IMG/VR virus record: IMGVR_UViG_3300050134_000025 | Coordinates: 1 to 23,552 of that record | DNA: 23,552 nt | Origin: a virus | Direction: 5' to 3' (one strand) | Part shown: in pieces, positions 1 to 21,850 of the stretch | Layout of the letters: each line of letters opens with the position of its first letter | Position numbering within the stretch: position 1 is the stretch's first letter | The notes under the pieces: generated by a model | Databases searched by the model: none | What the model was told of the DNA's origin: nothing | Seen by the model: the letters and a program-made list of their open reading frames with translations, nothing else | Made by a program: the position numbers and the translations under genes

Positions 1-1
1 C

Positions 2-2062: not shown

Positions 2063-2063
2063 C

Positions 2064-3125
2064 ATGTTCCCGCCGCCTTCAATCACACCTCCCGAACTGA
2101 ACGACTGGGAATTCTTTTACAATGGCCTGCGCTTCGGCGACGAAACACCGCTCGGTATTCTCAACATCGAGGGCTTGGATCTCGCGAACATTCGACACAG
2201 CAACGTCAATTGGCCGCGCGACCACGGCCAATCAAAAGGACTGGACCTGTACGCAGATAGAGCCATCCTCTTTGACCTGTGGATGAAAACGGACGGTACA
2301 TCGCTAGGCCACGAGCAGCTCGCCGTTGCCGCCGCAACGGTTGTGCTGCCTAACGAAGAACCTCCCCTGTGGTTCAAGCTTCCAGACTTCCCTGTGCTGT
2401 GTGTACTGTGCCGGCCGCTTAAGCGGCTAATGAAGTATGAAAGCGATTACGCAGCCGCAAGAATCGGTAAGCCTGAATTGAGCTTTTCTGCCGCCGACCC
2501 GCGGATTTACGGTGCAGGTGTCGAAACCCTGCTGTCACCGAACTACCCGGCGACGACGGTCACGATCGACAACGAAGGTAACACAGAGATGCGGCCGATC
2601 GCGGTGTTCACAGGGCCGCTCGCGCGACCGAAGATCGGCAACGACACGATCGCTGGCATGCCGTTCCTCGAATTCATAGATCCGCAGGCCGAAGAAGAAG
2701 AAGAAGAATTCCGCAAGAAATGGGAAGCGGAAGTTACCAAACTCACGGAAGAAATAGAAAAAGAATCGACAGGTAAAGTTGAAAAAGAACTCAAAGAAAA
2801 AGAACGTAAAGAAATCAAAGAAAAAGGTGAAAAAGAATCCAAAGAAAAACTAGAAAAACGTGAAAAAGAAGAACGCGAAGGCGAACGCCCAACCGTCAAA
2901 GCCGGCGATCAGATCCTTGTAGATCTAGGCACGCCTCACCTCGCGTTCTATTACCCCGGCGGGATCGCCAAAGACGAACCTGAAAACATCATGCAGTGGG
3001 TAACGTCAAGCTCTCGGTGGTGGGACGTGATCCCGGGTGAAAACGCCATCAAGTTCTCCTCGTTTGACACGAAAGCGACTGCAGGTACCGCTGAGTTGCA
3101 GTGGGCGTCGGCATACCAGCTATGA
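2064..3125 (+). CDS. Distal tail-like (Dit-like) minor tail protein with charged helical insert
   Basis: This minor tail protein of about 353 residues lies directly after the tape measure, the usual place of the distal tail protein joining tube to tip. Recognisable family features are an N-terminal beta-rich part (DWEFFYNGLRFGD, a central NWPRDHGQSKG loop) and a C-terminal strand pattern ending WWDVIPGENAIKF and then ELQWASAY, which resembles the usual C-terminal end of siphovirus distal tail proteins. Residues about 210-275 are an almost pure Glu/Lys/Arg helix dropped into the C-terminal beta domain between EFIDPQ and the next strand (GDQILVDL). I chose ATG 2064; an in-frame GTG at 2049 would overlap the tape measure by 14 bases, and the only SD-like AAGGTG lies at 2046-2051. 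The next gene overlaps by ATGA. The assignment rests on order and sequence style, not on a search. Confidence 0.75.
   Translation: MFPPPSITPPELNDWEFFYNGLRFGDETPLGILNIEGLDLANIRHSNVNWPRDHGQSKGLDLYADRAILFDLWMKTDGTSLGHEQLAVAAATVVLPNEEPPLWFKLPDFPVLCVLCRPLKRLMKYESDYAAARIGKPELSFSAADPRIYGAGVETLLSPNYPATTVTIDNEGNTEMRPIAVFTGPLARPKIGNDTIAGMPFLEFIDPQAEEEEEEFRKKWEAEVTKLTEEIEKESTGKVEKELKEKERKEIKEKGEKESKEKLEKREKEEREGERPTVKAGDQILVDLGTPHLAFYYPGGIAKDEPENIMQWVTSSSRWWDVIPGENAIKFSSFDTKATAGTAELQWASAYQL
2691..2888 (+). other. Glu/Lys-rich helical insert inside the Dit-like protein
   Basis: These 66 codons encode almost only Glu, Lys and Arg with a few Leu, Ile, Ser and Thr, and are predicted to be a long charged alpha helix or coiled coil. 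The DNA is nearly all purine on this strand (runs of GAA and AAA), unlike the mixed codon use on either side. It interrupts a beta-rich domain, so it most likely forms an extended hairpin or spike projecting from the tail tip. Slippage in the purine tract is a plausible origin. Confidence 0.7.
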
Positions 3126-4798
3126 CGATCGTCACCGTCCCCCCTGGCCTCGACCATCAGGTTACGTATAAATTCACTGACCTGTTCAAGTTCCGGACGA
3201 TCGCCGAGTTGCCCGCGAACAAGATGCAGTTCGCGAAAGTCCTCAACGGTGTCGGGCCGCACACGTGCTCGATCAACGTCGAGGACAAAGGGATACGTAA
3301 CGCCGACTGGGCTCGAGCAACCGCAGAAAATCGCTCGGCCCTGTGGATCGATGTCGACGGCGTTTTGGTGTACGGCGGCCGTAACATAGGTCGCACACAC
3401 TCGCTGAGCACCGGCATTCTTACGGTCACCGGTAGCGACGCTTGCGGGTACCTTGCACAACGCCTGCAGGCACAGGACTACACGGCGTACACGGATCCCG
3501 AAGGGCATCATTGGGCTACGATTCCCGGTGCGCCCGGCGTGCGGATCGCATACTACCTCCTCACACAGGCGCTGGCGAAGGAATTCTCAATACCGATCAA
3601 CGTAACGGCATCAGGGATTACACCTGAAGAATTCTGGATTACGCTCTCAATTCCGGAAGAGCAGGAGCAGACACTCGCATCGCTTCTGTCGCAGATACAG
3701 GGCATGGGCTATGACACAGGCATTGACTACGCCAACGACGTGTCGTACGTGAACGGACGGCCCACGACAACGATCACACTGTCCTACCCGCGCCGTGGTG
3801 TAGCAGGCTCGCGCAAATCGCTCGTCGTGGAGGCGTCGCAGATCCTTGATTGGGAATGGGACGGCGACGGCTCCGGGCAGGGCAACCGGATCGTGGAGCT
3901 CGCTGGCGCCACTGCATTCCGCACATACGCAGTCGTGTGGAAAAAAGCATGGGAAGAAGGCTACCCACTGCTCGAGCTGGTGCAGTCCCACTCAGCGCTC
4001 GCCCCTTCAGGCGTCGACTCGAAGGTGCTTGAAGCGTACGCGGCCGGCGACCTGTCGATGCTCGCATACCCGCTGACCGCCCCTGTGATCACGCTCCCGA
4101 TGTTCGGCACGCCATCTATTACAGAACTGAGCGTTGGCGAAGAGATTGAGCTACGCGTGCCTGTGGGTGCTGGTGATCTGCCGTCCAACAATCCTCTGTT
4201 CCCTGACGGACTTCAGTATTACTTTCGCATGGCGCGCATCGAAGGTGAAATCACTGACGAGGGCATACCGTTGATGAAACTCGCGCTGAACACGCCACCC
4301 GGCAGGTTCCCTGTGCCCCCGCCCGAACCAAGCAGCGGTAAACCTGTAGGTGGTGGAGGCAAATGGGAAGAAAAAGAAAAAGAACGCGAAGAAGAAGAAC
4401 ACGAAGAAGAAGAAGAAAAATTGTTGGGTACAGGTTCGTTTAGTTTCGTGTTTACTCGCCTCGAAGCTCCCGCTCCCGTGTTTTACAACGTGAATCTAAT
4501 CGGAGCCGAAGAAGGCGAAGAAGGTATCTTGATGGTTGAAGGCAGCATTAAAACTGAAGTGGAAGCGCCTCCTGAACGTGAAGGTGGTCAAGGTAAGTAC
4601 ACCGCACATTTGGCGACGCTTACACCGCTTCCGGAAGGCACCAAACGCCTCAAATTTACCATAACTTCAGGCCCGACGTCCGTAACCTTCGTCTATGACC
4701 CAGAAACTAATACCTTGAAAATGCCCGGTACAGGCGCGAAACCGTCAAAAGAATTGATCCCCTGCACCATTTCCGGTACCTACGAAGCGTTTGGCTGA
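3122..4798 (+). CDS. Baseplate hub-like minor tail protein with extra C-terminal domain
   Basis: This 558-residue tail-tip protein resembles the hub or tail-associated proteins that follow the distal tail gene in actinophages. The N-terminal 370 residues show the typical order: FTDLFKFRTIAELP, KVLNGVGPHTCSINVED, a DGVLVYGGRN strand, then a SLLSQIQGMGYDTGIDY helix-strand unit. Residues 414-433 are a short Glu/Lys tract following a Gly-rich hinge (VGGGGK). A separate C-terminal domain of about 120 residues, starting GTGSFSFVFTRLEAPAP, is beta-rich and unrecognised; it may bind a surface sugar or trimerise. ATG 3122 overlaps the previous stop as ATGA, which decides against the upstream GTG at 3101. 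The last base is shared with the next start (TGATG). Confidence 0.75.
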   Translation: MTIVTVPPGLDHQVTYKFTDLFKFRTIAELPANKMQFAKVLNGVGPHTCSINVEDKGIRNADWARATAENRSALWIDVDGVLVYGGRNIGRTHSLSTGILTVTGSDACGYLAQRLQAQDYTAYTDPEGHHWATIPGAPGVRIAYYLLTQALAKEFSIPINVTASGITPEEFWITLSIPEEQEQTLASLLSQIQGMGYDTGIDYANDVSYVNGRPTTTITLSYPRRGVAGSRKSLVVEASQILDWEWDGDGSGQGNRIVELAGATAFRTYAVVWKKAWEEGYPLLELVQSHSALAPSGVDSKVLEAYAAGDLSMLAYPLTAPVITLPMFGTPSITELSVGEEIELRVPVGAGDLPSNNPLFPDGLQYYFRMARIEGEITDEGIPLMKLALNTPPGRFPVPPPEPSSGKPVGGGGKWEEKEKEREEEEHEEEEEKLLGTGSFSFVFTRLEAPAPVFYNVNLIGAEEGEEGILMVEGSIKTEVEAPPEREGGQGKYTAHLATLTPLPEGTKRLKFTITSGPTSVTFVYDPETNTLKMPGTGAKPSKELIPCTISGTYEAFG

Positions 4799-5757
4799 TG
4801 CCTCCTTCTATACACCCACCCGCCATCCGAGACCTTGACAGGCTCGTCGGCAATACACGTAACGCGCTGACGCAGCTTACCGGCCGACAAGGCCTGGAAT
4901 CCGGCTCGGAAGGCAAAGAAGGAAAAGAAGGCCCCGAAGGTAAACCCGGCAAAGAAGGACCCGAAGGAGAAACAGGCGAACGTGGGGAACGGGGAGAACG
5001 CGGCGAAAAAGGAGAAAAAGGAGAAAAAGGGGAAAAAGGTGTCGAAGGAAAAGAAGGCCCCCCCGGTCCTGAAGGTAAATCATCCAGCCTGAGCATCACA
5101 TGGGCAGCGGCGACTGAAGTTACCCTCAGCGAAGAACACGAACCATCAAGCACAGACGCAACTGAGGTGGTAGTCACTGCTGTTGGGGGCGCATCTCCAG
5201 CGTTGCTGGAGATCCTTGCAGAAGGCAAAGTCATCGCGAAACTATCGGTTGGGCTCGTTGAAGACAGTACCGAGCCCGTCTCCTTCATTCTCAGCGCGAA
5301 AAAGAAGTGGGAAGCGAAAGTAGTTGAAGGGACTGGAGTCAAAGTCTTCGCGGCCTACGGAACGATTACAGGTGGGGGTGGCGGTGGGGGCGGCGAACTG
5401 GAATGGTTCGACGTCGAAGAACTAAACTCGGCGATCAAGCCCGTCGGGTATCGCCTGCCAGCATACTCCAACAAACTTCAGTATGCGATCGGCAGCGATG
5501 GGCTAGTGTATTTCGCTGGCGTATGTGAAATACACGAAGGTAGCGTGGGAGAACTAACAAAAGTATGGAAAATACCTTTGTCAGCGGCCCCTAAAAAGCA
5601 ACGTGTGATTTTGGGGATTGCCATCGAATCAGGCGGCGTCGTCAACTTCTACCTAGAAGTCCTGCCCAGCGGTGTAGTACAGACAGGCATCATTCCCCTG
5701 AGCGAAGGCAAATTCGTGACGTTCGATAACAGCTACTTCCCGAGAAACGCGGAATGA
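4798..5757 (+). CDS. Collagen-like tail fibre protein
   Basis: This 319-residue protein is probably a trimeric fibre at the tail tip. Residues 1-32 form a short helical N-terminus (RDLDRLVGNTRNALTQL) that may anchor to the hub. Residues 36-95 are an uninterrupted Gly-X-Y collagen run of about 20 triplets, mostly GEK, GER, GKE and GPE. X and Y are largely charged rather than proline, so the triple helix would be stabilised by salt bridges. A beta domain follows to about residue 185, then an eight-glycine hinge, then a C-terminal domain beginning ELEWFDVEEL and containing YAIGSDGLVYFAGVCEI, probably the receptor-binding or trimerisation head. It starts at the TGATG junction with the hub gene. 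Collagen-like fibres are common in phages of Gram-positives; the heads are unrecognised. Confidence 0.82.
   Translation: MPPSIHPPAIRDLDRLVGNTRNALTQLTGRQGLESGSEGKEGKEGPEGKPGKEGPEGETGERGERGERGEKGEKGEKGEKGVEGKEGPPGPEGKSSSLSITWAAATEVTLSEEHEPSSTDATEVVVTAVGGASPALLEILAEGKVIAKLSVGLVEDSTEPVSFILSAKKKWEAKVVEGTGVKVFAAYGTITGGGGGGGGELEWFDVEELNSAIKPVGYRLPAYSNKLQYAIGSDGLVYFAGVCEIHEGSVGELTKVWKIPLSAAPKKQRVILGIAIESGGVVNFYLEVLPSGVVQTGIIPLSEGKFVTFDNSYFPRNAE
4903..5082 (+). repeat. Collagen-type Gly-X-Y repeat tract
   Basis: The 60 codons have Gly at every third residue without a break. The most repetitive stretch, around 4975-5040, consists of tandem 9-base units coding GER and GEK. The strand is strongly purine-rich, like the charged tracts in the two preceding genes. 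Confidence 0.9.
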
Positions 5758-5764
5758 GGGGCAC

Positions 5765-6454
5765 ATGAACTTTGTCGGTCCGCAAACACCTAAACAACCT
5801 CTGCGCGCGTACGCAGGTGCAACCTTCAGCGTACTCGCGCGCTTGTGGCTAGACGAAGAGCACACCGAACCGTTCTCACTTGTCGGTTGGACGGTAAAGT
5901 TCCCGATCGAAGGTCTGCGGACCCTGGTCGAAGGTATGGGCTTGAATATCTCAGCGGTGGAGGGTGAAATACGAGTCACCCTAAGCGATGCAGAAACGCT
6001 CGACGCAGCGAACCGCAGCAACCGATCCTTCCCGTACCTGCTGTCCATCGAAAAAGAAGGCGAGACCTTCTACCTGCTGTCCGGGCCGTTTGTGTTTGCT
6101 CAAACCAACAGTGCACAAGGCACGGCTGTCGGCGAAGTGGATATCGCCGTCATCGACCCGGCAGCGATCAACCTCGTGATCGAGGAGGGCGCGCCGGGCA
6201 AAGAAGGTCCTCCGGGCCCCGAAGGACCGCCTGGTAAAGAAGGCCCTGCCGGGTCGGGGGATCTTCATTACACATTCACACAAGGCTCACCGTCAGCGCT
6301 GTGGACGATCAAACACGGTCTCGGCAAGAACCCGTCTGTGACTGTGTTGGACACGGCGGGGGATGAAGTAGAGGGTATTACCGAATACCTAGGTCTTGAC
6401 GAACTGACGATCACCTTTAGCGCGCCGTTCAGCGGCGAGGCATATCTCAACTAG
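5765..6454 (+). CDS. Tail fibre with baseplate-type N-terminus and short collagen stretch
   Basis: This 229-residue protein has three modules. Residues 1-135 look like the upper-baseplate/fibre N-terminal domain of phages of Gram-positives (GATFSVLARLWLDEEHTEPF, then VTLSDAETLDA and a PYLLSIEKEGETFYLLSGPF strand pair). Residues 142-163 are a short perfect Gly-X-Y stretch, richer in proline than that of the preceding fibre. Residues 166-229 form a small C-terminal domain found on many tail fibres, with WTIKHGLGKNPSVTVLD and a final FSAPFSGEAYLN. The following two genes end in a similar His-x-Leu module. The SD-like GAGGGG sits just before the ATG. It probably acts in adsorption; the exact ligand is not visible. 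Confidence 0.72.
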   Translation: MNFVGPQTPKQPLRAYAGATFSVLARLWLDEEHTEPFSLVGWTVKFPIEGLRTLVEGMGLNISAVEGEIRVTLSDAETLDAANRSNRSFPYLLSIEKEGETFYLLSGPFVFAQTNSAQGTAVGEVDIAVIDPAAINLVIEEGAPGKEGPPGPEGPPGKEGPAGSGDLHYTFTQGSPSALWTIKHGLGKNPSVTVLDTAGDEVEGITEYLGLDELTITFSAPFSGEAYLN

Positions 6455-6468
6455 AACGGAGCGATAAA

Positions 6469-7590
6469 ATGGCCGCTGGTATCCGCAAGTTTGGGTCAAA
6501 GATCGACCTGACCAAGAATGAACTGCTGAACGCAGTTATACAAAACCTAGCGTCGGCGCCGAGCTCGCCCAAAGAAGGGCAGATTTACTTCGATACGACG
6601 AAACACCAATTCGGTTACTACAACGGCACCGAATTTATCTACGGCTCCGCCTACACGCTTCCCGAAGCCACTGAAACGGTACTCGGCGGCGTCAAGCTGG
6701 CCGGTGATCTGAAAGGCGGAACGGGCGCAGCTCCGCAAGTTACCAACCTGCACCTTGAAGGCAACACGGCGATCAACCACAAGCTCACGTCTGTAAGCCT
6801 ACCGACCGAAGCCAAAGACGCCGCCAACAAGGAATACGTCGACAGCAAGGTCAATGGGCTCTCGTGGAAGAACCCCGTCCTTGCAGCAACGACAGCGAAC
6901 CTCTCAGTCACTGCGGCCGGCGAAGAACTCGAATCCACAGCCAACGAAGAACTTGAAATTGACGGCCAAAAACCCGGTGTTGGCAAGCGCGTGTTGGTGT
7001 GGAAACAAACGGAATCCAAGAACAACGGCATCTACGAAGTCGTAGCTACGGGTTCGGGCGCCGCGAAGTACAAACTCAAACGAACCGCGGACGCCAACAC
7101 TACTGTAGAGCTACAAGATGCCGCCGTCTTCGCTGAAAAAGGTACCGCGAACGAAGGTCTTGAGTTCGTACAAACCGCAACTGTGACCACCGTTGGCACG
7201 ACTGCACAGACGTGGGTGAACTTCCAGAGCGGTTTGTCGGTCACTGGAGAATCTCCATACACCGAACGCACTGGAAGCAAAATCAAAATCGTACCTGTGA
7301 CTGCGACGCAGCCCGTGGTACCAGCAGAAGGTGCGACCTCAGCAGCGATCACAGGTGTCGCACGTGTCAAGAACTACGCGATTCAGCTCAAAGCCGGCGT
7401 GACAGAACTAGAAATCGAACACAGCCTGGAAAATTACATGGTTCGTGTTCAGGCGTATGAAAGCAGCGCAGAAAAACCTGCGGCGCCGATCGAACTTGCA
7501 TGGGAACCTAACGGCGCTAACAAAGTCAAGATCACTTGGCCTGAAGCTCCCGCGGCGAAAACCATTTACTTCATCGCGATTGTAGGCTGA
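6469..7590 (+). CDS. Modular tail fibre protein
   Basis: This 373-residue protein has the layout of a common phage tail fibre family. The N-terminus holds PKEGQIYFDTTKHQFGYYNG, the short strand unit seen in many fibre proteins. A segment around residues 120-260 matches the family pattern DAANKEYVDSKVNGLSWK, PGVGKRVLVWKQTESKNNGI, a tract of TADANTTVELQDAAVFAEKG and an ending AQTWVNFQSG. This block occurs widely in phage and prophage fibres and probably forms a repeated beta structure. The last 65 residues (LEIEHSLENYMVRVQAYE to FIAIVG) are another copy of the small C-terminal module that also ends the genes before and after. The ATG follows an SD-like GGAGCG. It lies in the adsorption cluster and is likely a virion component. 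Confidence 0.78.
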   Translation: MAAGIRKFGSKIDLTKNELLNAVIQNLASAPSSPKEGQIYFDTTKHQFGYYNGTEFIYGSAYTLPEATETVLGGVKLAGDLKGGTGAAPQVTNLHLEGNTAINHKLTSVSLPTEAKDAANKEYVDSKVNGLSWKNPVLAATTANLSVTAAGEELESTANEELEIDGQKPGVGKRVLVWKQTESKNNGIYEVVATGSGAAKYKLKRTADANTTVELQDAAVFAEKGTANEGLEFVQTATVTTVGTTAQTWVNFQSGLSVTGESPYTERTGSKIKIVPVTATQPVVPAEGATSAAITGVARVKNYAIQLKAGVTELEIEHSLENYMVRVQAYESSAEKPAAPIELAWEPNGANKVKITWPEAPAAKTIYFIAIVG

Positions 7591-7594
7591 CACC

Positions 7595-8392
7595 GTGGCC
7601 GTACAAACACGTACAGTTGAGTATAAGCCAAAGTTTGCTGCAGGGCTGCAGATACCCAGTGGTGCCAGTACATCCAAGGTGCTCGTCTCGGACGGGGAAG
7701 GTAACGGTACCTGGGCCGAAGTCACCGAAGCGCGAATCGCCAACGAAGCGATCTCCACAAGCAAGCTCAAAGAAAATGCCGTCACCGAAGGAAAGCTCGC
7801 AGCGGCATCGGTTGGCACGGCGGTGCTCAAGAAAGAAGCGGTCTCTCCGGAAAAGATCGAAAAAGAAGCGGTCACCGCAGAAAAGATTGCTGCGTCGGCA
7901 GTAACCGAAACCAAGCTGGCTACAAGTGCAGTAACCGAAGCCAAGATCAAAAGCGGTGCCGTATCCACGGAAAAGATTGCCACCGAAGCAGTTAATGCAG
8001 AAAAGATCAAAAACGGAACTATTACAGGAGAAAAGCTCGCAGTGGGCGCAGTCCTCGCCGAAAAGATCAAAAATGAAGCGGTCACGGCAGAAAAGGTCAA
8101 ACCTGCTACCGCACCCGCCGCACCAACCAAAGAAAACGAAGTCACTCTCGGAACAGCGGGTGTTGCCCGCAAGTTCGTTGCGGCGATCGAGGGCAACGCT
8201 GTCGAAACCAAATTCAAAATCAAACATGGCCTTGAAACGAAATTCTTGGTATCCACGATCGTGACAGCGACTTTTGAAGAGCCCGTCACGATGCTCGCTA
8301 CGGTTACAGCGATTAGCGCTTCGGAAGTAGAAGTTGTGTTCACGGTTGCGCCGGGTAAAGGAACCATCAACTATGTCGTCCTAGTCGGCTAG
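7595..8392 (+). CDS. Decapeptide-repeat tail fibre protein
   Basis: This 265-residue protein starts at GTG 7595, four bases after the previous stop; no good SD is visible. Residues 1-41 are an N-terminal cap (VEYKPKFAAGLQIPSGA, a DGEGNGTW turn). Residues 42-171 are thirteen exact-length ten-residue repeats of consensus A-V-T-x-x-K-I-x-x-x, such as AVTAEKIAAS and AVSTEKIATE. A linker follows (PATAPAAPTKENEVTLG), then the C-terminal module FKIKHGLETKFLVSTIV to YVVLVG, related in layout to the C-termini of the two upstream fibres. The regular repeat suggests a rod made by a repetitive trimeric fold. A 320-codon antisense frame over this gene is a shadow caused by the repeated codons. Confidence 0.75.
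   Translation: MAVQTRTVEYKPKFAAGLQIPSGASTSKVLVSDGEGNGTWAEVTEARIANEAISTSKLKENAVTEGKLAAASVGTAVLKKEAVSPEKIEKEAVTAEKIAASAVTETKLATSAVTEAKIKSGAVSTEKIATEAVNAEKIKNGTITGEKLAVGAVLAEKIKNEAVTAEKVKPATAPAAPTKENEVTLGTAGVARKFVAAIEGNAVETKFKIKHGLETKFLVSTIVTATFEEPVTMLATVTAISASEVEVVFTVAPGKGTINYVVLVG
7718..8107 (+). repeat. Thirteen tandem 30-bp units encoding decapeptides
   Basis: The units keep a 30-base period with no insertion or deletion. Protein identity is highest at the Ala-Val-Thr and Lys-Ile positions. DNA identity is partial, so the array has diverged after duplication, and repeat length rather than base sequence is what is conserved. Confidence 0.85.
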
Positions 8393-8404
8393 AAAGGAAG
8401 CAGC

Positions 8405-9817
8405 ATGACAAGATTCGGGTGGTTGGTGGTGGTGTTGTTGCTGTGTCCGGCGACAGCATCCGGAGCGACAGTTGTAGGGTGGGGGCGAAACACACAAGGC
8501 GCGTTGGGCGCGGGCTTCCGCGGGACGGCATCGACCCCTGTGCCTACAAAGATTGGGACGGTCAAGCAGATTGCGCTTGGGAGTGCCGGCTACGCGTTGC
8601 TGGAAAATGGCACGGTGGACGCTTGGGGCGATAACACCTTCGGCGAGCTCGGCAACGGCACACACACGAACACATCACTGCCAGCCCCCGTGCCTGGTGT
8701 CTCGGGTGTAATTGCGATAGCTGCCAGCGCCGCACATGCAATGGCGTTGCTCACCAACGGTACGGTGGTGACTTGGGGCGGCAACTCCTACGGGCAGCTC
8801 GGCAACGGCACGGGAGGTGGTGGGCGCGAAGTCGGGCAGGACACTCCCATACACGTCCCCGGCTTGAATGGTGTAGCGGCTGTTGCGGCTGGAGGTGCGG
8901 ACGATGCAGCCCTGCTGAGCAACGGCACGGTCGAGGCGTGGGGCGAAAACAAAGCCGGCCAGCTCGGCGACGGCACGACGAGCGAAAAAAGCGTGCCCAC
9001 GCCCGTCAAGGGCCTGACCGGCGTGAAGGCAATTGCTCTCGGCGGAGACCCGTCCATCGGTGGGAGGCTGTTCGCGATCCTCGAGAACGGAACGCTGATG
9101 GCCGTCGGCGGCAACGGTGCGGGGCAGCTCGGCAGCGACAGCACAGCGAAGATCTCGACTACACCTGTGCAAGTGCGGGGCCTTGAACACGTAATCTCTG
9201 TGTCCACGGACATCTCGCATAGCATGGCGTTGCTCGAAAACGGTACAGTGTACACGTGGGGCGATAACGCCTACGGACAGCTAGGTGTGCCGACGTCGGA
9301 AAAGTGCGGGGCCGATCCCTGCAGCCGCACCCCACTACCGACCGGGCTTACTGACGTCACATCGATCTCTGCGGGCTTTCACTTCAGTACGGCAGTCAGC
9401 GACGGTGAGGCCTTCACGTGGGGAGCCGGACAGTTCGGTGAGCTCGGGGATGAAAGCACGCTCAACCGCACGCTGCCCGGACCCGTCGTCGGGCTAAGTG
9501 AAGTACAAAGCATCACAGCCGGCGAATCGCACGCCCTCGCAATCATTGACGGCCCGCCTCCTCCGCCTGTGATCTCTGTGACTCCAGGTATCGACTCTCT
9601 GGCGGTGCACTGGACGCTTATGGAAGAACCGTCCAAGACGTGGAGCATTCAGTGGCGCCCCAAAGGCATACATAACAAATTCAGCAAGACGATACTCTTG
9701 CCGTCTGCCGCGCGCAGCTACACGATCACCGGATTGACGGAACAGCCGTACGAAGTGCTCGTGCGGAACGCATCCAACTTCGGCACACGTATCGTTGTTG
9801 GTACTCCCGCCCACTGA
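8405..9817 (+). CDS. Secreted RCC1 seven-blade propeller protein with FN3-like C-terminus
   Basis: This 470-residue protein has an N-terminal signal peptide (basic MTR, hydrophobic LVVVLLL, then ATASGA as a likely cleavage site). The mature part holds seven RCC1 repeats, recognised by WG-N-x-x-GQLG units: VVGWGRNTQGALG, AWGDNTFGELG, TWGGNSYGQLG, AWGENKAGQLG, AVGGNGAGQLG, TWGDNAYGQLG and TWGAGQFGELG. Seven repeats fit one closed beta-propeller. After a proline hinge (PPPPPVISV), the last 85 residues resemble a fibronectin type III domain (AVHWTLMEEPSKTWSIQW, ending YTITGLTEQPYEVLVRNA). The SD AAAGGAAG precedes the ATG. It sits between fibre and lysis genes. A signal peptide is unexpected for a virion protein, so it may be exported to the host surface; an adhesin role is the alternative. 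Confidence 0.85.
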   Translation: MTRFGWLVVVLLLCPATASGATVVGWGRNTQGALGAGFRGTASTPVPTKIGTVKQIALGSAGYALLENGTVDAWGDNTFGELGNGTHTNTSLPAPVPGVSGVIAIAASAAHAMALLTNGTVVTWGGNSYGQLGNGTGGGGREVGQDTPIHVPGLNGVAAVAAGGADDAALLSNGTVEAWGENKAGQLGDGTTSEKSVPTPVKGLTGVKAIALGGDPSIGGRLFAILENGTLMAVGGNGAGQLGSDSTAKISTTPVQVRGLEHVISVSTDISHSMALLENGTVYTWGDNAYGQLGVPTSEKCGADPCSRTPLPTGLTDVTSISAGFHFSTAVSDGEAFTWGAGQFGELGDESTLNRTLPGPVVGLSEVQSITAGESHALAIIDGPPPPPVISVTPGIDSLAVHWTLMEEPSKTWSIQWRPKGIHNKFSKTILLPSAARSYTITGLTEQPYEVLVRNASNFGTRIVVGTPAH

Positions 9818-9832
9818 CGGAGGTGACGAGAT

Positions 9833-10285
9833 ATGCCTGGCAGCGATGAGATGGGTCGTACACAGCCTGAGTTTTCACTTGGAGAACGTCTTGCGCGTGT
9901 TGAAGCCGAGCAGAACTGCCAAGCGGATCTAGGAGAAAACCTCCAGGGCCAGCTTGACAGACGCCTAACAGAAATAGAGAAGTTGTTTATGGAGAAGCTT
10001 GCAGGTTTGCGCGCAGAGCACCAAGCGGCGCTTGCCGCACAAAAAGAGGCGATCGGGAAGGTGGAGACAGTTACAGACCGGCGATTCGAGAATGCGTCCA
10101 GCCAAGCGGAGAAGCGTGAGGGCCTGATGGGGCAACGTGTAGATGCGTTGGACGGGCGTGTACAGGCAGTCGAGCGTGGAGAATCCGGCTCGCGCGCTGT
10201 AGGTGATTGGTGGGTACGTTCGGCAGCCATCATCGGCGGTCTGGCAGCCTTGGGTTACCTCATCTACTTGATAGCACAACATTAG
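9833..10285 (+). CDS. Coiled-coil protein with C-terminal membrane segment
   Basis: This 150-residue protein has a long coiled coil (residues about 18-118, e.g. LGERLARVEAEQNC and KEAIGKVETVTDRRF) and one C-terminal transmembrane helix (SAAIIGGLAALGYLIYLI) that ends three residues before the C-terminus. The layout is seen in many phage proteins encoded beside holins. It has a strong SD (GGAGGTGA) and is followed eight bases later by the holin-like gene. By position it is probably a lysis-associated membrane protein, perhaps a holin partner; nothing in the sequence proves that. No signal peptide is present, so the coiled coil should be cytoplasmic unless the protein inserts the other way round. 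Confidence 0.65.
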   Translation: MPGSDEMGRTQPEFSLGERLARVEAEQNCQADLGENLQGQLDRRLTEIEKLFMEKLAGLRAEHQAALAAQKEAIGKVETVTDRRFENASSQAEKREGLMGQRVDALDGRVQAVERGESGSRAVGDWWVRSAAIIGGLAALGYLIYLIAQH

Positions 10286-10293
10286 GAGGCAAT

Positions 10294-10674
10294 ATGAAAA
10301 GCGCGTTTTCCATCAATCGAGTTGTAGCGGTACTTACACCTCTTGTCTTCACGCCCGCTGCGATCGTGGCGTCAGCGTGGCTGGCAAAGCATGGGATACA
10401 AGGCGTTGACAAGGAAGAGATCTTGACGGCAGAGATCGCTGGCGCCACTGCAGCAATTGGCGCTGCGGGCATGTGGCTACACGGCCACCATAAATACGAA
10501 GCACAGGTCGCAATGACTACACGTCGAGCACTAGAAGTGCCGGTTGTGCTCGAAGATGAACCCCCGCCGTTGGCATCTCCCGCGCTGCAGCCCGTCCAAG
10601 AGACCGCCGCGGACATCGTCGCTCGAGCACGACGGGAGCTGGACGCGTTGGCGCCAGCCGAGACGACATCATGA
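10294..10674 (+). CDS. Putative holin
   Basis: This 126-residue protein has two predicted membrane helices, VVAVLTPLVFTPAAIVASAW and a second around EIAGATAAIGAAGMWLHG, followed by a charged, proline-rich cytoplasmic tail. Holins form the membrane lesions that let the endolysin reach the wall. I chose ATG 10294 because a perfect AGGAGG lies four bases upstream; the open frame extends further back but only into the preceding gene. The stop overlaps the lysozyme start as ATGA, so the two are translationally coupled. The call rests on topology, size and the adjacent lysozyme gene, since holins share little sequence. Confidence 0.7.
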   Translation: MKSAFSINRVVAVLTPLVFTPAAIVASAWLAKHGIQGVDKEEILTAEIAGATAAIGAAGMWLHGHHKYEAQVAMTTRRALEVPVVLEDEPPPLASPALQPVQETAADIVARARRELDALAPAETTS

Positions 10675-11339
10675 AGTACGAAGTAGATGCTGCCGGCGTC
10701 GAGCTCATCGCGAGCTTTGAGGGCTACGTCAACGGCGTGTACAACGACAGCAGAGGATTCTGCACGGGGGGCTTTGGGCACCTCTTCCACGAGTCGCCAG
10801 CAACGGAGGAGGATCACAGGCTCTACGACGGCAAGGGCAAGACGTTCTGGCTCAAGATGCTCCACAACGACATCTACCGTGACGCGATCGAGCCCATGAA
10901 CGCCACGCTACACGTCCAGCTCGACCAAAACGAGATCAACCCCGTGGCCTCCGCGTGCTACAACTGCGGCCCCGGCTTCGTGGAGGGCACAGTTGGACGC
11001 CTCATCAACGCTCGGAAGTGGAACGCGGCCGCGAACGCGTTCATGCTGTGGGATCACCCGAGCGTGCTTATTCCGCGCCGCGAGCAGGAGCGGGCGTTGT
11101 TCCTCCAGGGTGTACGCGAAGGGGGTCCTCCGTTTCCGTGGCTCGAGCCGTGGGAGCGTTCAGCCGTGCTTGAGGACGACATCTTGGTGCGCACGAATCG
11201 CGACCAGCTCAGGCGCAAGCAGTTGCGTGCGGAGATGACCGTGTACCGCAAGAGGGTGTGGCACGCGGCGCAGGGTGCGGGCGGCTGGGAGATCCGCTTC
11301 AGGAGACAGCGCTACCGCACGCTGTGGGCGCGCACATGA
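10671..11339 (+). CDS. Endolysin, T4-type lysozyme (GH24)
   Basis: This 222-residue muramidase would cleave the MurNAc-GlcNAc bond of the host wall. The catalytic triad of the T4 lysozyme family is visible with exact spacing: Glu17 in ASFEG, Asp26 in VYNDSRG and Thr32 in FCTGGFGH (T4: Glu11, Asp20, Thr26). The C-terminal part of the fold shows YNCGPGFVEGTVGRLIN and the conserved VLIPRREQERALFLQG (RR-x-x-E). There is no signal peptide, consistent with release through a holin. After the catalytic domain (to about residue 165) is a basic tail of about 55 residues rich in Arg and Trp, perhaps a wall- or membrane-binding element; it is not a known binding repeat. It overlaps the holin gene by four bases and ends just before a terminator. 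Confidence 0.88.
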   Translation: MKYEVDAAGVELIASFEGYVNGVYNDSRGFCTGGFGHLFHESPATEEDHRLYDGKGKTFWLKMLHNDIYRDAIEPMNATLHVQLDQNEINPVASACYNCGPGFVEGTVGRLINARKWNAAANAFMLWDHPSVLIPRREQERALFLQGVREGGPPFPWLEPWERSAVLEDDILVRTNRDQLRRKQLRAEMTVYRKRVWHAAQGAGGWEIRFRRQRYRTLWART

Positions 11340-11343
11340 CTTC

Positions 11344-11373
11344 GAGCTAGGTTCGCCTCCTGCCTACTAGCTC
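11344..11373 (+). other. Inverted repeat after the lysozyme stop
   Basis: A perfect 7-bp inverted repeat (GAGCTAG ... CTAGCTC) encloses 16 bases. It has no T-run after it, so it is unlikely to terminate alone. It may protect the 3' end of the late transcript or act with the hairpin that follows. Confidence 0.4.
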
Positions 11374-11384
11374 TGAGGGCCCAG

Positions 11385-11420
11385 CGGGCGTCTCTGCGAT
11401 CGGCAGGGGCGCCCGTTTGT
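11385..11420 (+). terminator. Intrinsic terminator of the late operon
   Basis: A 13-bp stem (CGGGCG then TCTCTGC pairing with GCAGGGG then CGCCCG, with two G-T pairs) closes a five-base loop GATCG and is followed by TTTGT. It lies 46 bases after the lysozyme stop, before the next promoter, and should end late transcription. The T-tract is short, so termination may be partial. Confidence 0.75.
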
Positions 11421-11424
11421 GCGC

Positions 11425-11440
11425 GTAGAACAAATGTCCA
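11425..11440 (+). promoter_or_regulatory. LexA-like box / shared upstream element, copy 1
   Basis: The core GAACAAATGTCC (11428-11439) differs by one base from the actinobacterial damage-box pattern GAAC-N4-GTTC. A 16-base block around it is 14/16 identical to one at 22287-22302. It starts 19 bases before the -35 of the promoter that follows, a good place for an operator. Confidence 0.5.
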
Positions 11441-11446
11441 TAGGCC

Positions 11447-11475
11447 TTGATTTTCAAGTCGATTTGGTCGATACT
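11447..11475 (+). promoter_or_regulatory. Promoter with leaderless geometry, copy 1
   Basis: TTGATT (-35) and GATACT (-10) each match the consensus at four of six positions and are separated by 17 bases. The -10 ends six bases before ATG 11482, so transcription would begin at or beside the start codon. An overlapping CTTGA-TTT-TCAAG inverted repeat (11446-11458) could be a further protein site. Confidence 0.55.
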
Positions 11476-11481
11476 ATGTAC

Positions 11482-11748
11482 ATGAGCAAGCAGGCAAACA
11501 CCAAGGAGCAGACCACGACAAGCAAGCTTATGTACTTTGCAAGTGAACTCCGCTACATAGGTAGGGGCACTGTCGAGAAAGCCGAGCCTGATGGAAACTT
11601 GATCGTCAACATTCCAGGCGTGGGCCGCGGGCGTGTCGCCGCAGATATGGTTTTCAAGACCAAGCGTGAAGCCTTGAACTTCGCTCAGGTCCCGCAGAGC
11701 GGCGGTTGGAGCGATGTTGCAAAGCTAAACTTGGTCGGTCGTCGGTGA
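11482..11748 (+). CDS. Small early protein of unknown function
   Basis: This 88-residue protein is not recognised. The N-terminus is polar (SKQANTKEQTTTSK). The rest looks like a small beta barrel: YIGRGTVEKAEPDGNLIVNI, then VGRGRVAADMVFKTK, and an amphipathic C-terminal end. I chose ATG 11482 over the upstream GTG at 11419 and ATGs at 11437 and 11476 because the promoter -10 at 11470-11475 places the transcript start there and no SD exists. It overlaps the next gene by GTGA. Placement right behind a regulated-looking promoter suggests an early or damage-induced role. Confidence 0.6.
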   Translation: MSKQANTKEQTTTSKLMYFASELRYIGRGTVEKAEPDGNLIVNIPGVGRGRVAADMVFKTKREALNFAQVPQSGGWSDVAKLNLVGRR

Positions 11749-11981
11749 TCGGCTATTACACATCGGTACAGGATGGTAGACGAGCAGGCTTCTTGTTGGG
11801 CCCGTTTCCTACGCACGACGAAGCGCTAGACCTCGTAGAGTTTACACTAGACTTGGCCGCCGACGCCGATCCATTTTCTCACTTCTACGCCTTTGGCACG
11901 TGTAGGGTCGAGGCAGACGAAGATGCTCTTCCTGTAGGTCGTCTGAATGGTTATATCAGTAAGTCACGGCGCGTTACTTGA
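11745..11981 (+). CDS. Small conserved-type phage protein, unknown function
   Basis: This 78-residue protein starts at GTG 11745, overlapping the previous stop as GTGA. Its pattern (GYYTSVQDGRRAGFLLGPF, THDEAL, then ADPFSHFYAFGTCRVE) resembles a type of small phage protein I associate with early regions of actinophages, but I cannot name a function. The fold looks like two strands, a helix and a further strand. It ends convergent with the replication operon, overlapping the mIHF-like gene by eight bases; no terminator is visible at that junction. Confidence 0.65.
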   Translation: MIGYYTSVQDGRRAGFLLGPFPTHDEALDLVEFTLDLAADADPFSHFYAFGTCRVEADEDALPVGRLNGYISKSRRVT

Positions 11982-12261
11982 CCCGTGCGGGTAGCTGACG
12001 CTCGATCGCCCGCCGCTGCTGAGTCGACAGCTCGCACATGAGCAGGTGCGGCCACACGTCTGCACGCTCGAACACCTGACGAGCGCCCTCACGTCCAAGT
12101 CCCCGTGCGGAGATGCAGACGTCGTACACCTCGGCCTCATGTAGGCACAGTGGAAGCTGCGAGCCGATGAGAATCTCGCGTAGCGAAACGACGCCTGCCG
12201 CGAGGCTTAGGAACAGGTTCGCACGCTCAGTGCGGACTCTACGCGCGTACTCGATGCTCAC
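11974..12261 (-). CDS. mIHF / H2TH-like small DNA-binding protein
   Basis: This 95-residue protein is basic at the N-terminus (YARRVRTERANLF), followed by VVSLREILIG and a helix-two-turn-helix-like block: VYDVCISARGLGREGARQVF, then WPHLLMCELSTQQRRAIERQ. The order (basic helix, SLREIL, G-x-G-R-x-x-A-R-x-x-x-E, terminal Q-R-x-x-I) resembles mycobacterial integration host factor and its phage relatives, which bend DNA. It is the last gene of the minus-strand operon. The start is GTG 12261 with AAGG upstream, overlapping the nuclease gene by 23 bases. The alternative is a conserved hypothetical protein with an S13-like fold. Confidence 0.55.
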   Translation of the reverse strand: MSIEYARRVRTERANLFLSLAAGVVSLREILIGSQLPLCLHEAEVYDVCISARGLGREGARQVFERADVWPHLLMCELSTQQRRAIERQLPARVK

Positions 12262-12619
12262 AGCGTAGCCTTGCTTGTACCGCTAGACGTTCGACGGTTT
12301 GTGTGGTCCTGAGCGTACCGAAGCCCCAGCGTGACGCCTGGTCGATGCAGTCGAGCACGTGCTCGAGCTGCCGTACGCTCGTGAGCATCAACGCCACTGC
12401 GCCGGCCTTGCGGAGATCCTCGAGCGTTTGTGCCTGCAGTGCGGTGAGTGTGCGCTCCTTGCTCGGTAGCTTGACCTCGATCGCGAGCATGACGCCGCGG
12501 TAGACCCCTACGTTGTCGGGCCAGCCGGCTCCGTAGGGGCCTCCCGCGACCTTGCGCATCCAGCCGCCTCGTTCGCGTACACGCTTAGCCATCTTGGCGG
12601 ATAGTGCGCCCTCTTTCAT
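12239..12619 (-). CDS. VRR-NUC type nuclease
   Basis: This 126-residue protein fits the stand-alone VRR-NUC domain, a PD-(D/E)XK nuclease found in phages and thought to act on branched DNA. Visible motifs are an N-terminal helix then GGWMRKVAGG, the catalytic Asp35 in GWPDNVGVYRG, Glu48 and Lys50 in AIEVKLPS, and the helix TALQAQTLEDLRKAGA, whose Gln is conserved in the family. The C-terminal 35 residues are basic and perhaps bind DNA. The start is ATG 12619, five bases after the ssDNA-binding candidate, in a recombination operon, which supports a resolvase-like role. Confidence 0.82.
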   Translation of the reverse strand: MKEGALSAKMAKRVRERGGWMRKVAGGPYGAGWPDNVGVYRGVMLAIEVKLPSKERTLTALQAQTLEDLRKAGAVALMLTSVRQLEHVLDCIDQASRWGFGTLRTTQTVERLAVQARLRCEHRVRA

Positions 12620-12624
12620 GGCGC

Positions 12625-13269
12625 CTACTCGAAGTCGCCTAGGTCGATGTCGTCGTCCTCATCGTCCTCGTCATCGTCTGAGCGTTTGCGTTTGGACGAT
12701 GATTTACGGGCAGAGGATTTTTTACGTCGTTTGGCTGGTGGCTCGTCTTCCTCATCGTCCTCGTCATCGTCTGTGTCGTCCTCCTCTTCGTCGTCGGCGT
12801 CGAGCTCGTCATCCCCGTCATCCTCGTCGTCATCGTCGTCATCGTCTTCAACGTCCTCCAGCGAGAGGAATCCACCTTGGAACTTGACGACGCTCTTTGT
12901 GTCGTACTGGCCACTGTCATCCTCGTCATCTACGAGGTTGACGGCAATTTCCTCACCTGACACTGCCTGACCGATCCTACGGATATCCGCCTGACCAGAC
13001 GGTACTTTCTTGCCGCACGCTTCGAGCAGTTCACGGAAGCGGTGATAGCACTTGGGAGACATCCACAACCGCTCGGTCATTTTCTTCTTCTTGTCTCGCG
13101 GGCCAAGCAGCGTCAAAGGCACAGCCAGGCCGATGCTGCCCTTCTGCTGCGAACGTACAGGCTTGCATTTACCTATGCGTGCCTTACGTACGCCGGGTTT
13201 GACGCGCAGCCCGCCTTCGGGCTTTTCTTCCTTGCGGAAGTCCAACAGAAAGTCGGTGCTAGTTGCCAT
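12625..13269 (-). CDS. ssDNA-binding protein candidate with long acidic tail
   Basis: This 214-residue protein has an N-terminal domain (residues 1-135) like phage DUF669-type proteins, proposed ssDNA binders that accompany Sak4 ATPases. It shows GGLRVKPGVRKARIGKCKPV, a SIGLAVPLTLLG strand, CYHRFRELLEACGKKVP and GEEIAVNLVDDED. Residues 141-176 are almost all Asp and Glu. Then comes a Lys/Arg/Ser island (178-197, e.g. AKRRKKSSARKS), and a second acidic end finishing DIDLGDFE, reminiscent of the acidic aromatic tip that ssDNA-binding proteins use to recruit partners. I took ATG 13269, which has GGAG upstream; the open frame continues further back without support. It overlaps the ATPase gene by 11 bases. 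Confidence 0.6.
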   Translation of the reverse strand: MATSTDFLLDFRKEEKPEGGLRVKPGVRKARIGKCKPVRSQQKGSIGLAVPLTLLGPRDKKKKMTERLWMSPKCYHRFRELLEACGKKVPSGQADIRRIGQAVSGEEIAVNLVDDEDDSGQYDTKSVVKFQGGFLSLEDVEDDDDDDDEDDGDDELDADDEEEDDTDDDEDDEEDEPPAKRRKKSSARKSSSKRKRSDDDEDDEDDDIDLGDFE

Positions 13270-14017
13270 CTGTAAGTCTCCTGTTCCACGCCCTAATAAT
13301 GTAGGGCATCGTTGGGTTACGTGTAATTGGTTTGAGCTCGTTGGTGCACTCGTCCGTTTTATACAACCTGCTGTCTCCTGTGAACAACTCATCTACCCAC
13401 TTACCGTTCACCTTACGGCGACGAGCATTGCCGGTAATGCCTACGATGTCGCACAGAGCGGCACGGCATCCCTCAGGCAGGTCAGCGGTGATTTCCGTAA
13501 CGCTGCCGTCATCGTCCTTCACGCGACGCTCCTGTGCCAAGAATACAACGTGCATCGGTAGGTTACGAAACGCGAAGCACATTGCCTCAACGAGCTTGCC
13601 GGCACGGCCGTAGATAGGCTGTGAAGGCTGCTTCTTCTCGCGTGCAGGATCACGATCCTCTGCCTCTTCCATCACCTTGTCCATCGCGGCGGCGTGCAGC
13701 ATGGTCACCGTGTCGATGGCAACTGTCTTGTACGGATGGTCACCTGACTTCAGGTACCAGTACGCCAAGTTGATCTCGTCAAATGTGGATACCTCGCGCT
13801 TATGGGCTCGGCTGCCCACGGTTGAGCGTGTGCCCTTCTCGCGTACGTCGATGATGAGCACCTTAGGCGCCGACGCAGCGAAACGTGTCTTGCCTGTGCC
13901 GTTATCACCATAAACGAGGATCTTCACCCACGGATCAAGCTTGTCCACTGACTGGATGCCTTGGGCGAAGCGCTCGATCGCCTCGGATGACGGTTGTGTG
14001 CGTGACCTAGTTGTCAA
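13259..14017 (-). CDS. Sak4-like RecA-fold ATPase (AAA_24 type)
   Basis: This RecA-like ATPase of about 252 residues belongs to the phage nucleotide-binding type linked to Sak4 single-strand annealing/recombinase proteins. The Walker A is GDNGTGKT (residues 37-44), followed by FAASAPKVLIIDVREKGT. A Walker B-like strand is TVAIDTVTMLHA. Late motifs include MHVVFLAQERRVKDD and DLPEGCRAALCDIVGITG, both typical. I prefer the TTG at 14017: AAGGGG lies nine bases before it, and the frame further upstream (TTG 14071, ATG 14062) lies inside a separate 58-residue gene. Neighbours, a Cas4-type nuclease upstream and an ssDNA-binding candidate downstream, form the usual recombination set. Confidence 0.78.
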   Translation of the reverse strand: MTTRSRTQPSSEAIERFAQGIQSVDKLDPWVKILVYGDNGTGKTRFAASAPKVLIIDVREKGTRSTVGSRAHKREVSTFDEINLAYWYLKSGDHPYKTVAIDTVTMLHAAAMDKVMEEAEDRDPAREKKQPSQPIYGRAGKLVEAMCFAFRNLPMHVVFLAQERRVKDDDGSVTEITADLPEGCRAALCDIVGITGNARRRKVNGKWVDELFTGDSRLYKTDECTNELKPITRNPTMPYIIRAWNRRLTDGN

Positions 14018-15506: not shown

Positions 15507-15733
15507 TTCAACTCCTCCATGCGTCGAGCGATGCGCCTAGCCACCTGTGCCGCACGCAGCCCAAGTTCCTCTGCACGGAGCAGCAGCGCCTTCTCGCGAT
15601 TAGTTGTGACGGTTGAGTTACGCTCGGCCTTCAAGACAGATGTGCCCGTCTCGATGCTTTGCGCAGCGCTATACAAGTTATAGCTACCGACGGTCTTGCG
15701 CTGTTCAACCATTTCCTTACGGGTCCGTTTCAT
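15503..15733 (-). CDS. Small basic helical protein, unknown function
   Basis: This 76-residue protein is unrecognised. It begins MKRTRKEMVEQRKTVGSYNL and ends in an Arg-rich amphipathic helix (ALLLRAEELGLRAAQVARRI, then ARRMEELK). It is probably all-helical and basic, so nucleic-acid or polymerase binding is possible. ATG 15733 overlaps the polymerase stop as ATGA, which decides it over the in-frame GTG at 15739; its own stop overlaps the next ATG in the same way. Confidence 0.62.
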   Translation of the reverse strand: MKRTRKEMVEQRKTVGSYNLYSAAQSIETGTSVLKAERNSTVTTNREKALLLRAEELGLRAAQVARRIARRMEELK

Positions 15734-21087: not shown

Positions 21088-21759
21088 TTAGGAGCTTATC
21101 ACTCCCAGGCCCTTCAGGAGCACGCGCACCTGACGAGCGTTGAAGCGGTACTGCGCCTTGGGCGATGCCTTCGGGAACGCTGCGGGGTGCTTGCGAGCGA
21201 ACCCGCGCACCTGATGCTCGGGCAAGTTCGCGATCGTCGCCACGTCGTCTGCGCTGAAGGACGGCTCGTCTGAGGCCTCTTTTACACGTGCAGGTTTGCT
21301 GCCGGAGCCTCTTGGACGGCCGCGGGGTTTCTTCGGGGGCTCGGGCTCGTCGTCCTCCTCGTCATCGTCGTCGGGCTGTACGGCTGCGACGATTGCCTCG
21401 CGTATATCGTCGTCGGACATGGACTTTTTCACGGTCACGTCCAACTCTTGCTCTTTGATGTAGGCCTTCAACTCGGAGCGGTCCAGGTCTGCGATCGGCA
21501 AGGTGTCGACGGGCTCATCATCCTCCTCGTCATCGTCCTCCTCGTCGTCCTCATCCGACTCGACTTGCGCCTTGGACGCTTTTCCACGTTTGGCGGCTGG
21601 TTTGGTCTCCTCCTCGTCCTCCTCAAGCTCGTCGTCCGGCTCCTCGAGATCGTTCAGGTCGGTTGCCGCCTCAAGTGCGGCTAGCTCCTCGTCAAGGCCG
21701 GCGAGCTCCTCGTCCTCCGGATCGACAGCCTTTGCCTTTTTCGCGGTCTTTGCGGCCAT
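21088..21759 (-). CDS. Acidic SAP/HeH-like and AT-hook DNA-binding protein
   Basis: This 223-residue protein starts at ATG 21759 (AGGAGG ten bases upstream); the longer frame to 22059 runs through the divergent gene and is not used. The parts in order are: a Lys/Ala-rich N-terminus, an acidic stretch (13-51), a short basic break (KPAAKRGKASK), a second acidic run (67-82), a SAP or HeH-like motif (LDRSELKAYIKEQELDV, then SMSDDDIREAIVAAV), a third acidic run, an AT-hook (KKPRGRPRGSGS, 143-154), and a C-terminal domain (170-220; DVATIANLPEHQVRGFARKH). It probably binds AT-rich DNA in its minor groove, as a nucleoid-type or regulatory protein. The monocistronic unit has its own terminator. Confidence 0.68.
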   Translation of the reverse strand: MAAKTAKKAKAVDPEDEELAGLDEELAALEAATDLNDLEEPDDELEEDEEETKPAAKRGKASKAQVESDEDDEEDDDEEDDEPVDTLPIADLDRSELKAYIKEQELDVTVKKSMSDDDIREAIVAAVQPDDDDEEDDEPEPPKKPRGRPRGSGSKPARVKEASDEPSFSADDVATIANLPEHQVRGFARKHPAAFPKASPKAQYRFNARQVRVLLKGLGVISS

Positions 21760-21782
21760 GTTACGTATGCCTCCTGTAGGTT

Positions 21783-21797
21783 GTAGAGCAAACAAGC
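21783..21797 (+). promoter_or_regulatory. Weak third copy of the upstream element
   Basis: The 15 bases match the element at 22287 at 11 of 15 positions (GTAGA-CAAAC kept, the GTCC half lost). Its core begins 30 bases before the -35 that follows, the same distance as at the 22290 site. It also lies within the leader of the divergent minus-strand gene, so it could act on both. Chance similarity is possible. Confidence 0.3.
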
Positions 21798-21815
21798 TGA
21801 CCCTACCATGCGCGC

Positions 21816-21844
21816 GTGACGGATGGCCTACCGTCGTGTATCCT
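21816..21844 (+). promoter_or_regulatory. Promoter with leaderless geometry, copy 2
   Basis: GTGACG and TATCCT each match four of six consensus bases and are 17 bases apart. The -10 ends six bases before GTG 21851, as at the two other promoters. The 91-base gap 21760-21850 must also hold the divergent promoter of the minus-strand gene, which I could not identify. Confidence 0.5.
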
Positions 21845-21850
21845 GCAGGC

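What the first reader, a model, noticed from the sequence alone, without database searches (positions are those of the whole stretch)
8405..9817. Secreted seven-blade RCC1 propeller with FN3-like end in a phage
An RCC1 propeller is mainly a eukaryotic and secreted-bacterial fold. Here seven clear repeats follow a signal peptide in a phage tail-lysis region, with an FN3-like domain at the end. A signal peptide would send it out of the cell, so it may alter the host surface (exclusion of other phages), mimic a host surface protein, or be an acquired adhesin rather than a virion part.
Basis: partly seen in the sequence, partly recalled or inferred. Interest (0 to 1): 0.6.

Follow-up and report, generated by a model that had tools for sequence, protein, structure and literature searches.

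The report
Phage-borne secreted host-like RCC1 propeller
A phage that probably infects soil Actinomycetota of the Solirubrobacterales carries, between its tail-fibre and lysis genes, a protein of a secreted bacterial family (seven-bladed RCC1 propeller plus FN3 domain, still with an apparent export signal), so it probably acts on the outside of the host rather than as one of the RCC1 virion proteins already known from phages.

Summary
ORF 8405-9817 (470 aa) has a signal-peptide-like N-terminus, seven RCC1 repeats forming one closed propeller, and a C-terminal domain with an FN3 fold. It lies between tail-fibre genes and the lysozyme of a genuine tailed-phage contig.

The premise that RCC1 is odd in a phage does not hold. 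RCC1 proteins are common in phages, and several have been found in virions by mass spectrometry. This one belongs elsewhere. Its closest relatives are chromosomal, mostly signal-peptide-bearing Solirubrobacterales proteins (50-54% identity, same RCC1+FN3 order). It falls inside their clade, apart from other phage RCC1 proteins. By one heuristic, 2 of 127 viral RCC1 ORFs but 48 of 70 bacterial ones look signal-peptide-bearing. The mature protein's only two cysteines are invariant in the family. A sister phage has a glycosyltransferase near the same position and no RCC1.

Best reading: a secreted gene from the probable host's lineage, captured in an accessory slot and exported late in infection to bind the host envelope. 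Family placement is well supported, export well predicted, and the surface-masking or exclusion role is inference. A new variant among phage RCC1 genes. Interest moderate.

The parts
8393..8400 (+). probable ribosome binding site AAAGGAAG upstream of the ATG at 8405
   Evidence: direct reading of the sequence
8405..9817 (+). whole ORF, 470 aa: signal peptide - seven-blade RCC1 propeller - FN3 domain
8405..8464 (+). signal-peptide-like N-terminus, MTRFGWLVVVLLLCPATASG (residues 1-20), cleavage near ASG|A or SGA|T
   Evidence: hydropathy 2.89 and shuffles; positive in the heuristic survey; pLDDT below 50 over residues 1-18
8465..9550 (+). RCC1 propeller, residues 21-382, seven blades (PF00415 matches at 8477-8584, 8609-8749, 8756-8896, 8924-9049, 9089-9232, 9239-9397, 9401-9544)
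8756..9088 (+). blades 3-4, the part best conserved with Solirubrobacterales relatives (52-73% identity)
9305..9322 (+). Cys301 and Cys306, the only cysteines of the mature protein, invariant in the seven family members aligned; probable disulfide
   Evidence: the disulfide itself is inferred
9551..9814 (+). C-terminal FN3-fold domain, residues 383-470
4798..8392 (+). four tail-fibre-type genes just upstream (4798-5757 collagen-like, 5765-6454, 6469-7590, 7595-8392)
9833..11339 (+). downstream lysis region: 9833-10285 (coiled coil plus C-terminal hydrophobic segment by eye), 10207-10674 (hydrophobic segments, holin-like by eye), 10671-11339 lysozyme
   Evidence: lysozyme PF00959 5.2e-14, phrog_7 endolysin; the other two read by eye

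Best explanation
The gene comes from a secreted RCC1-FN3 protein family of Solirubrobacterales (Actinomycetota) and sits in an accessory slot between the tail-fibre and lysis genes of a phage that probably infects that lineage. Steps shown: fold and domain order, placement inside the bacterial clade, export-type N-terminus, and a slot that differs in a sister phage. Steps inferred: it is transcribed with the late tail-lysis genes; it is exported through Sec and cleaved; its cysteine pair closes outside the cell; the propeller (chiefly blades 3-4) binds an envelope component such as a wall glycopolymer or surface protein; and by occupying that component on the producing cell and its debris it limits re-adsorption of progeny or superinfection.
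For: Full-length relatives at 50-54% identity over ~455 residues in four Solirubrobacterales loci, plus 44% and 45% in two more. The flanks read are chromosomal (kinases, P450, LysR, oxidoreductases, alcohol dehydrogenase), so these are not prophage genes. The window protein falls inside that clade (7 rows, 100/98; with L124, 96/91) and away from the other phage RCC1 proteins. Signal-peptide-like N-termini: 2 of 127 viral against 48 of 70 bacterial RCC1 ORFs, and 5 of 6 Solirubrobacterales relatives; window positive. Only two mature cysteines, both invariant. GC 62% (GC3 70%) against 53-58% for the neighbouring fibres and 65-73% for the bacterial genes. The sister phage (exonuclease 97%, polymerase 81%) has a glycosyltransferase between its collagen-like fibre and lysis genes and no RCC1 match. 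Host: the minor tail protein matches only Arthrobacter and Streptomyces phages among isolates and a prophage-like region in one Solirubrobacterales genome. Gaps of 12 and 15 bases to its neighbours and no promoter-like site suit co-transcription.
Against: No expression, export or binding data. Signal peptide judged by a home-made rule, not SignalP. Most bacterial relatives have an extra ~100-residue domain between signal and propeller that the phage copy lacks, so its signal is not demonstrably the family's own. The function of the bacterial family is unknown, so the masking or exclusion role rests on analogy. At 50-54% identity the donor is not identified, and direction of transfer is inferred. 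The adjacent tail-fibre genes and the virion-associated RCC1 proteins of other phages leave room for a structural role.
Confidence: 0.42

Rival explanations
1. Virion part: an accessory fibre or decoration protein, as other phage RCC1 proteins seem to be; the hydrophobic N-terminus serves assembly or membrane contact rather than export.
For: Sits directly behind four tail-fibre genes. RCC1 proteins are virion proteins in Escherichia phage W70 (three, phrog_4219) and in GAP32 by mass spectrometry (PMC11370258, PMC5259590). The window protein matches phrog_4219 at 3.7e-33.
Against: It clusters with secreted bacterial proteins, not with the phage RCC1 proteins in the tree. The other phage RCC1 ORFs nearly all lack such an N-terminus. 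It has none of the C-terminal segment that the neighbouring fibres appear to share (by eye).
Confidence: 0.25
2. Secreted, but for a task other than exclusion: adhesion, aggregation, or inhibition of an extracellular enzyme in the manner of BLIP-II; benefit to the infected or lysogenic host.
For: BLIP-II, a seven-blade RCC1-like beta-lactamase inhibitor, is structurally close (Z 32.8, 39% identity over 259 residues). 75 of 232 genomes of the order have RCC1 matches, and the L032 genome has matches on seven contigs, which suggests a diversified binding family.
Against: No binding partner or inhibitor-site test was made; no integrase was recognised in the window, so lysogeny is not shown; no lysogen was found.
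Confidence: 0.22
3. Host DNA joined to a phage contig by mis-assembly, or a recently captured passenger without function.
For: GC higher than the neighbouring fibres; absent from the sister phage.
Against: Ribosome site and start codon are in place, gaps of 12 and 15 bases to neighbours on the same strand, intact ORF at 53% identity with key residues kept, and phage genes on both sides.
Confidence: 0.07

Closest known systems
Secreted RCC1-FN3 proteins of Solirubrobacterales (for example L032 / JAOPZM010000245.1, G167:C242, G165:C177, G006:C241); unnamed family
   Same: Full-length similarity 50-54%, same RCC1 then FN3 order, invariant cysteine pair, export-type N-terminus in most
   Different: Bacterial copies are ~640-660 aa with an extra N-terminal domain, and chromosomal; the phage copy joins the signal directly to the propeller and lies in a phage tail-lysis region
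Phage virion-associated RCC1 proteins (phrog_4219; Escherichia phage W70, GAP32; 11 RCC1-like proteins in phAPEC6)
   Same: RCC1 propeller encoded by a tailed phage; profile match 3.7e-33
   Different: No signal-peptide-like N-terminus in nearly all viral RCC1 ORFs surveyed; those in the tree lie outside the clade of the window protein
BLIP-II, Streptomyces beta-lactamase inhibitory protein II
   Same: Seven-blade RCC1-like propeller of an actinobacterium; Z 32.8, 39% identity over 259 residues; secreted, from general knowledge
   Different: Shorter (273 residues solved), no FN3; inhibitor-site residues were not compared
Human RCC1, HERC2 RLD, UVR8
   Same: Fold (Z 48-54)
   Different: Eukaryotic nuclear, ubiquitin-ligase or photoreceptor proteins; about 25-30% identity; no reason to expect Ran exchange or light sensing here

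Membership tests
RCC1 superfamily | Seven RCC1 repeats over the curated cut-off | tested here: met
   Seven matches of 22.1-44.1 bits against a cut-off of 21.7
RCC1 superfamily | Closed seven-blade propeller | tested here: met
   Model mean pLDDT 87.5, pTM 0.84; Z 53.6, rmsd 1.3 over 348 residues to HERC2 RLD2
Solirubrobacterales secreted RCC1-FN3 family | Full-length similarity through the end domain | tested here: met
   50-54% identity, residues 11-17 to 468, in four loci; alignment
Solirubrobacterales secreted RCC1-FN3 family | Falls inside the family's clade | tested here: met
   Seven-row clade 100/98; with L124 96/91
Solirubrobacterales secreted RCC1-FN3 family | Invariant Cys pair in blade 6 | tested here: met
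   C301 and C306 in all seven
Solirubrobacterales secreted RCC1-FN3 family | Extra ~100-residue N-terminal domain between signal and propeller | tested here: not met
   Absent in the phage protein and in L125; present in the ~640-660 aa relatives. L125 also lacks the FN3, so neither domain is universal and this feature does not define the family
FN3 domain | FN3 beta sandwich | tested here: met
   Domain model pLDDT 80.3; Z 12.4, rmsd 1.9 over 85 residues to fibronectin type III
FN3 domain | Pfam fn3 sequence match | tested here: inconclusive
   None for the window domain at E up to 5; relative L112 0.073, below cut-off
Phage virion-associated RCC1 (phrog_4219 type) | Profile similarity | tested here: met
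   phrog_4219 3.7e-33; expected of any RCC1 protein
Phage virion-associated RCC1 (phrog_4219 type) | Groups with phage RCC1 proteins | tested here: not met
   Groups with Solirubrobacterales proteins; the nine other phage rows in the tree lie elsewhere
Phage virion-associated RCC1 (phrog_4219 type) | Present in the virion | not testable with these tools
   Needs virion proteomics
Secreted protein by the Sec pathway | Cleavable signal peptide | tested here: inconclusive
   Strong by hydropathy and a simple rule; SignalP and cleavage not tested
BLIP-II-type enzyme inhibitor | Inhibitor contact residues | not tested
   Only fold compared
Superinfection exclusion protein | Blocks a second infection when expressed | not testable with these tools
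   Needs a host; no PADLOC defence-model match

The most novel reading that the evidence does not exclude
Phages of Solirubrobacterales carry captured, secreted copies of a diversified host surface-propeller family and use them as decoys or receptor masks, so that the accessory slot between fibres and lysis genes is a place where surface-altering genes (propeller here, glycosyltransferase in the sister) are exchanged.
Probability: 0.2. Interest if true: 0.65.

Novelty: new variant of a known kind. Interest (0 to 1): 0.4.

Why it matters
RCC1 genes in phages are usually annotated as chromosome condensation proteins, and at least some are in virions. This one shows that a phage can also carry a bacterial, export-type RCC1 protein, so the annotation lumps different things together. 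If it masks or mimics the host surface, it would give a handle on phage-host surface interplay in Solirubrobacterales, for whose phages little was found here.

Tried and rejected
Eukaryote-like origin or Ran-exchange function: rejected; the nearest relatives are bacterial and UVR8, HERC and RCC1 only share the fold. Defence protein: no PADLOC match. Named NCBIfam family: none. Prophage origin of the bacterial relatives: flanks of the four loci inspected (L032, L169, L170, L171) look chromosomal. Similarity of the fibre gene 7595-8392 to G161:C131 as a prophage: the match lies in a repetitive, secreted-looking chromosomal protein, not a prophage. Lysozyme search in viral contigs: no relatives found. 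RCC1 in the Solirubrobacterales genome with the related prophage-like region (G129): no match. Other phages with the same RCC1-FN3 protein: the 78 loci from the family-profile scan reach at most 42% identity and nearly all match only the propeller. Own promoter: no sigma-70-like site in 7400-12700, which says little for this lineage. Literature on Solirubrobacter phages: nothing directly useful among the ten papers listed.

Full report
What is there. The window is one virus record of 23,552 bases. Genes 1-11,339 on the + strand run from a tape-measure protein through minor tail proteins and four fibre-type genes to a lysozyme; the replication genes (nuclease, a polymerase with uracil-glycosylase, exonuclease and PolA domains, a helicase) lie on the - strand. 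ORF 8405-9817 has a start codon with AAAGGAAG upstream and gaps of 12 and 15 bases to its neighbours. It holds seven RCC1 repeats, all over the Pfam cut-off.

Structure. AlphaFold2 on an alignment of 28 sequences gives mean pLDDT 87.5 and pTM 0.84, with the blades mostly above 90 and residues 1-18 below 50. The propeller matches HERC2 RLD2 at Z 53.6 and BLIP-II at Z 32.8. The end domain has no Pfam fn3 match, but folded alone from two sequences it is a seven-strand sandwich whose listed Foldseek hits are FN3 domains and their engineered derivatives or proteins solved with them; best Z 12.4 to fibronectin.

Export signal. Residues 1-20 have a short positive start, a core of hydropathy 2.89 and a small-residue end; 32 of 20,000 shuffles of the whole protein reach that hydropathy. 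The same rule applied to other RCC1 ORFs marks 2 of 127 viral ones (one in a 1737-aa ORF with 13 RCC1 repeats and several other domain types, one in a record whose neighbouring genes are of polysaccharide type), 48 of 70 bacterial ones, and 5 of 6 Solirubrobacterales relatives. The rule is crude and start codons are uncertain, so these are comparisons, not calls on single proteins. The mature protein has just two cysteines, C301 and C306, both invariant in the family; that suits a disulfide in an exported protein.

Relatives. A scan of GTDB genomes found the best match in a Solirubrobacterales MAG (48%, residues 17-468). In 232 genomes of that order, 75 have RCC1 matches, and full-length relatives including the FN3 domain lie in four genomes (G167 54%, G165 54%, G006 53% and 50%, G153 44%); a sixth relative, in G156 (45%), lacks the FN3. 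Where the flanks of these genes were read (L032, L169, L170, L171) they are chromosomal genes. Most of these bacterial proteins carry an extra domain of about 100 residues between signal and propeller that the phage protein lacks. In a 64-row tree the window protein lies inside their clade (100/98), with L124 as nearest (96/91), while the nine other phage rows fall elsewhere. Many deep branches of that tree are open and the letter make-up of many rows is uneven, but the clade that matters is firm. Blades 3-4 are best conserved (52-73%), blade 1, blade 7 and the FN3 least.

Slot. The sister contig IMGVR_UViG_3300037242_000110 (exonuclease 97%, polymerase 81%, minor tail protein 71%) starts and ends inside a collagen-like gene, so it is probably a circular genome broken in a repeat. 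Between that gene and its lysis genes it has a group 1 glycosyltransferase, and no RCC1 match was found in the whole contig (no control genome rang in that search, but the same family search found the window's gene). RCC1 thus occupies a variable position.

Host. Among phage isolates the minor tail protein 3101-4795 matches only Arthrobacter and Streptomyces phages. Distant homologues of it, of the gene before it and of a fibre gene lie together in a Solirubrobacterales genome, in a prophage-like stretch with an integrase-like ORF (by eye) further along the contig. With the RCC1 gene's own kinship this points to an actinobacterial, probably Solirubrobacterales, host; it is not proven.

Function. 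The literature places phage RCC1 proteins in virions of some large myoviruses and guesses at DNA packing (PMC11370258, PMC5259590, PMC7247149). The present protein differs from that set in signal and ancestry, so I favour export and binding to the host envelope, with masking against re-adsorption or superinfection as the most likely benefit (0.42 for the whole chain; about 0.85 for family placement, about 0.75 for export). A virion role (0.25) and another extracellular role such as adhesion or enzyme inhibition (0.22) remain.

Verdict. The gene is a new variant among phage RCC1 genes, related to secreted bacterial RCC1 proteins. Interest 0.4.

Noticed in passing
window 15730-18195 (-): Polymerase with an N-terminal uracil-DNA-glycosylase-like domain ahead of the 3'-5' exonuclease and PolA domains.
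   Followed up: no
L012-L017 and L008 (viral contigs): Tandem rows of many RCC1 genes without signal-like N-termini, several starting MAFT.SG...PPPP..YLWSWG; RCC1 gene clusters in uncultivated phages look like an expanded family.
   Followed up: partly
window 12625-13392 and 21088-22059 (-): Two ORFs with very acidic stretches (long runs of D and E) towards their C-terminal halves.
   Followed up: no
window 2049-3125 and 3101-4798 (+): Tail proteins with long K/E-rich charged runs inside them; the sister phage has an even longer run in the second.
   Followed up: no
L031:17783-18991 (-), sister contig IMGVR_UViG_3300037242_000110: Group 1 glycosyltransferase between the collagen-like fibre gene and the lysis genes, near where the window has RCC1; the ORF in the lysozyme's position (L031:16295-16909) has no Pfam match.
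   Followed up: partly
L254 and L255 (G129:C175): Prophage-like stretch in a Solirubrobacterales genome with distant homologues of this phage's tail proteins.
   Followed up: partly
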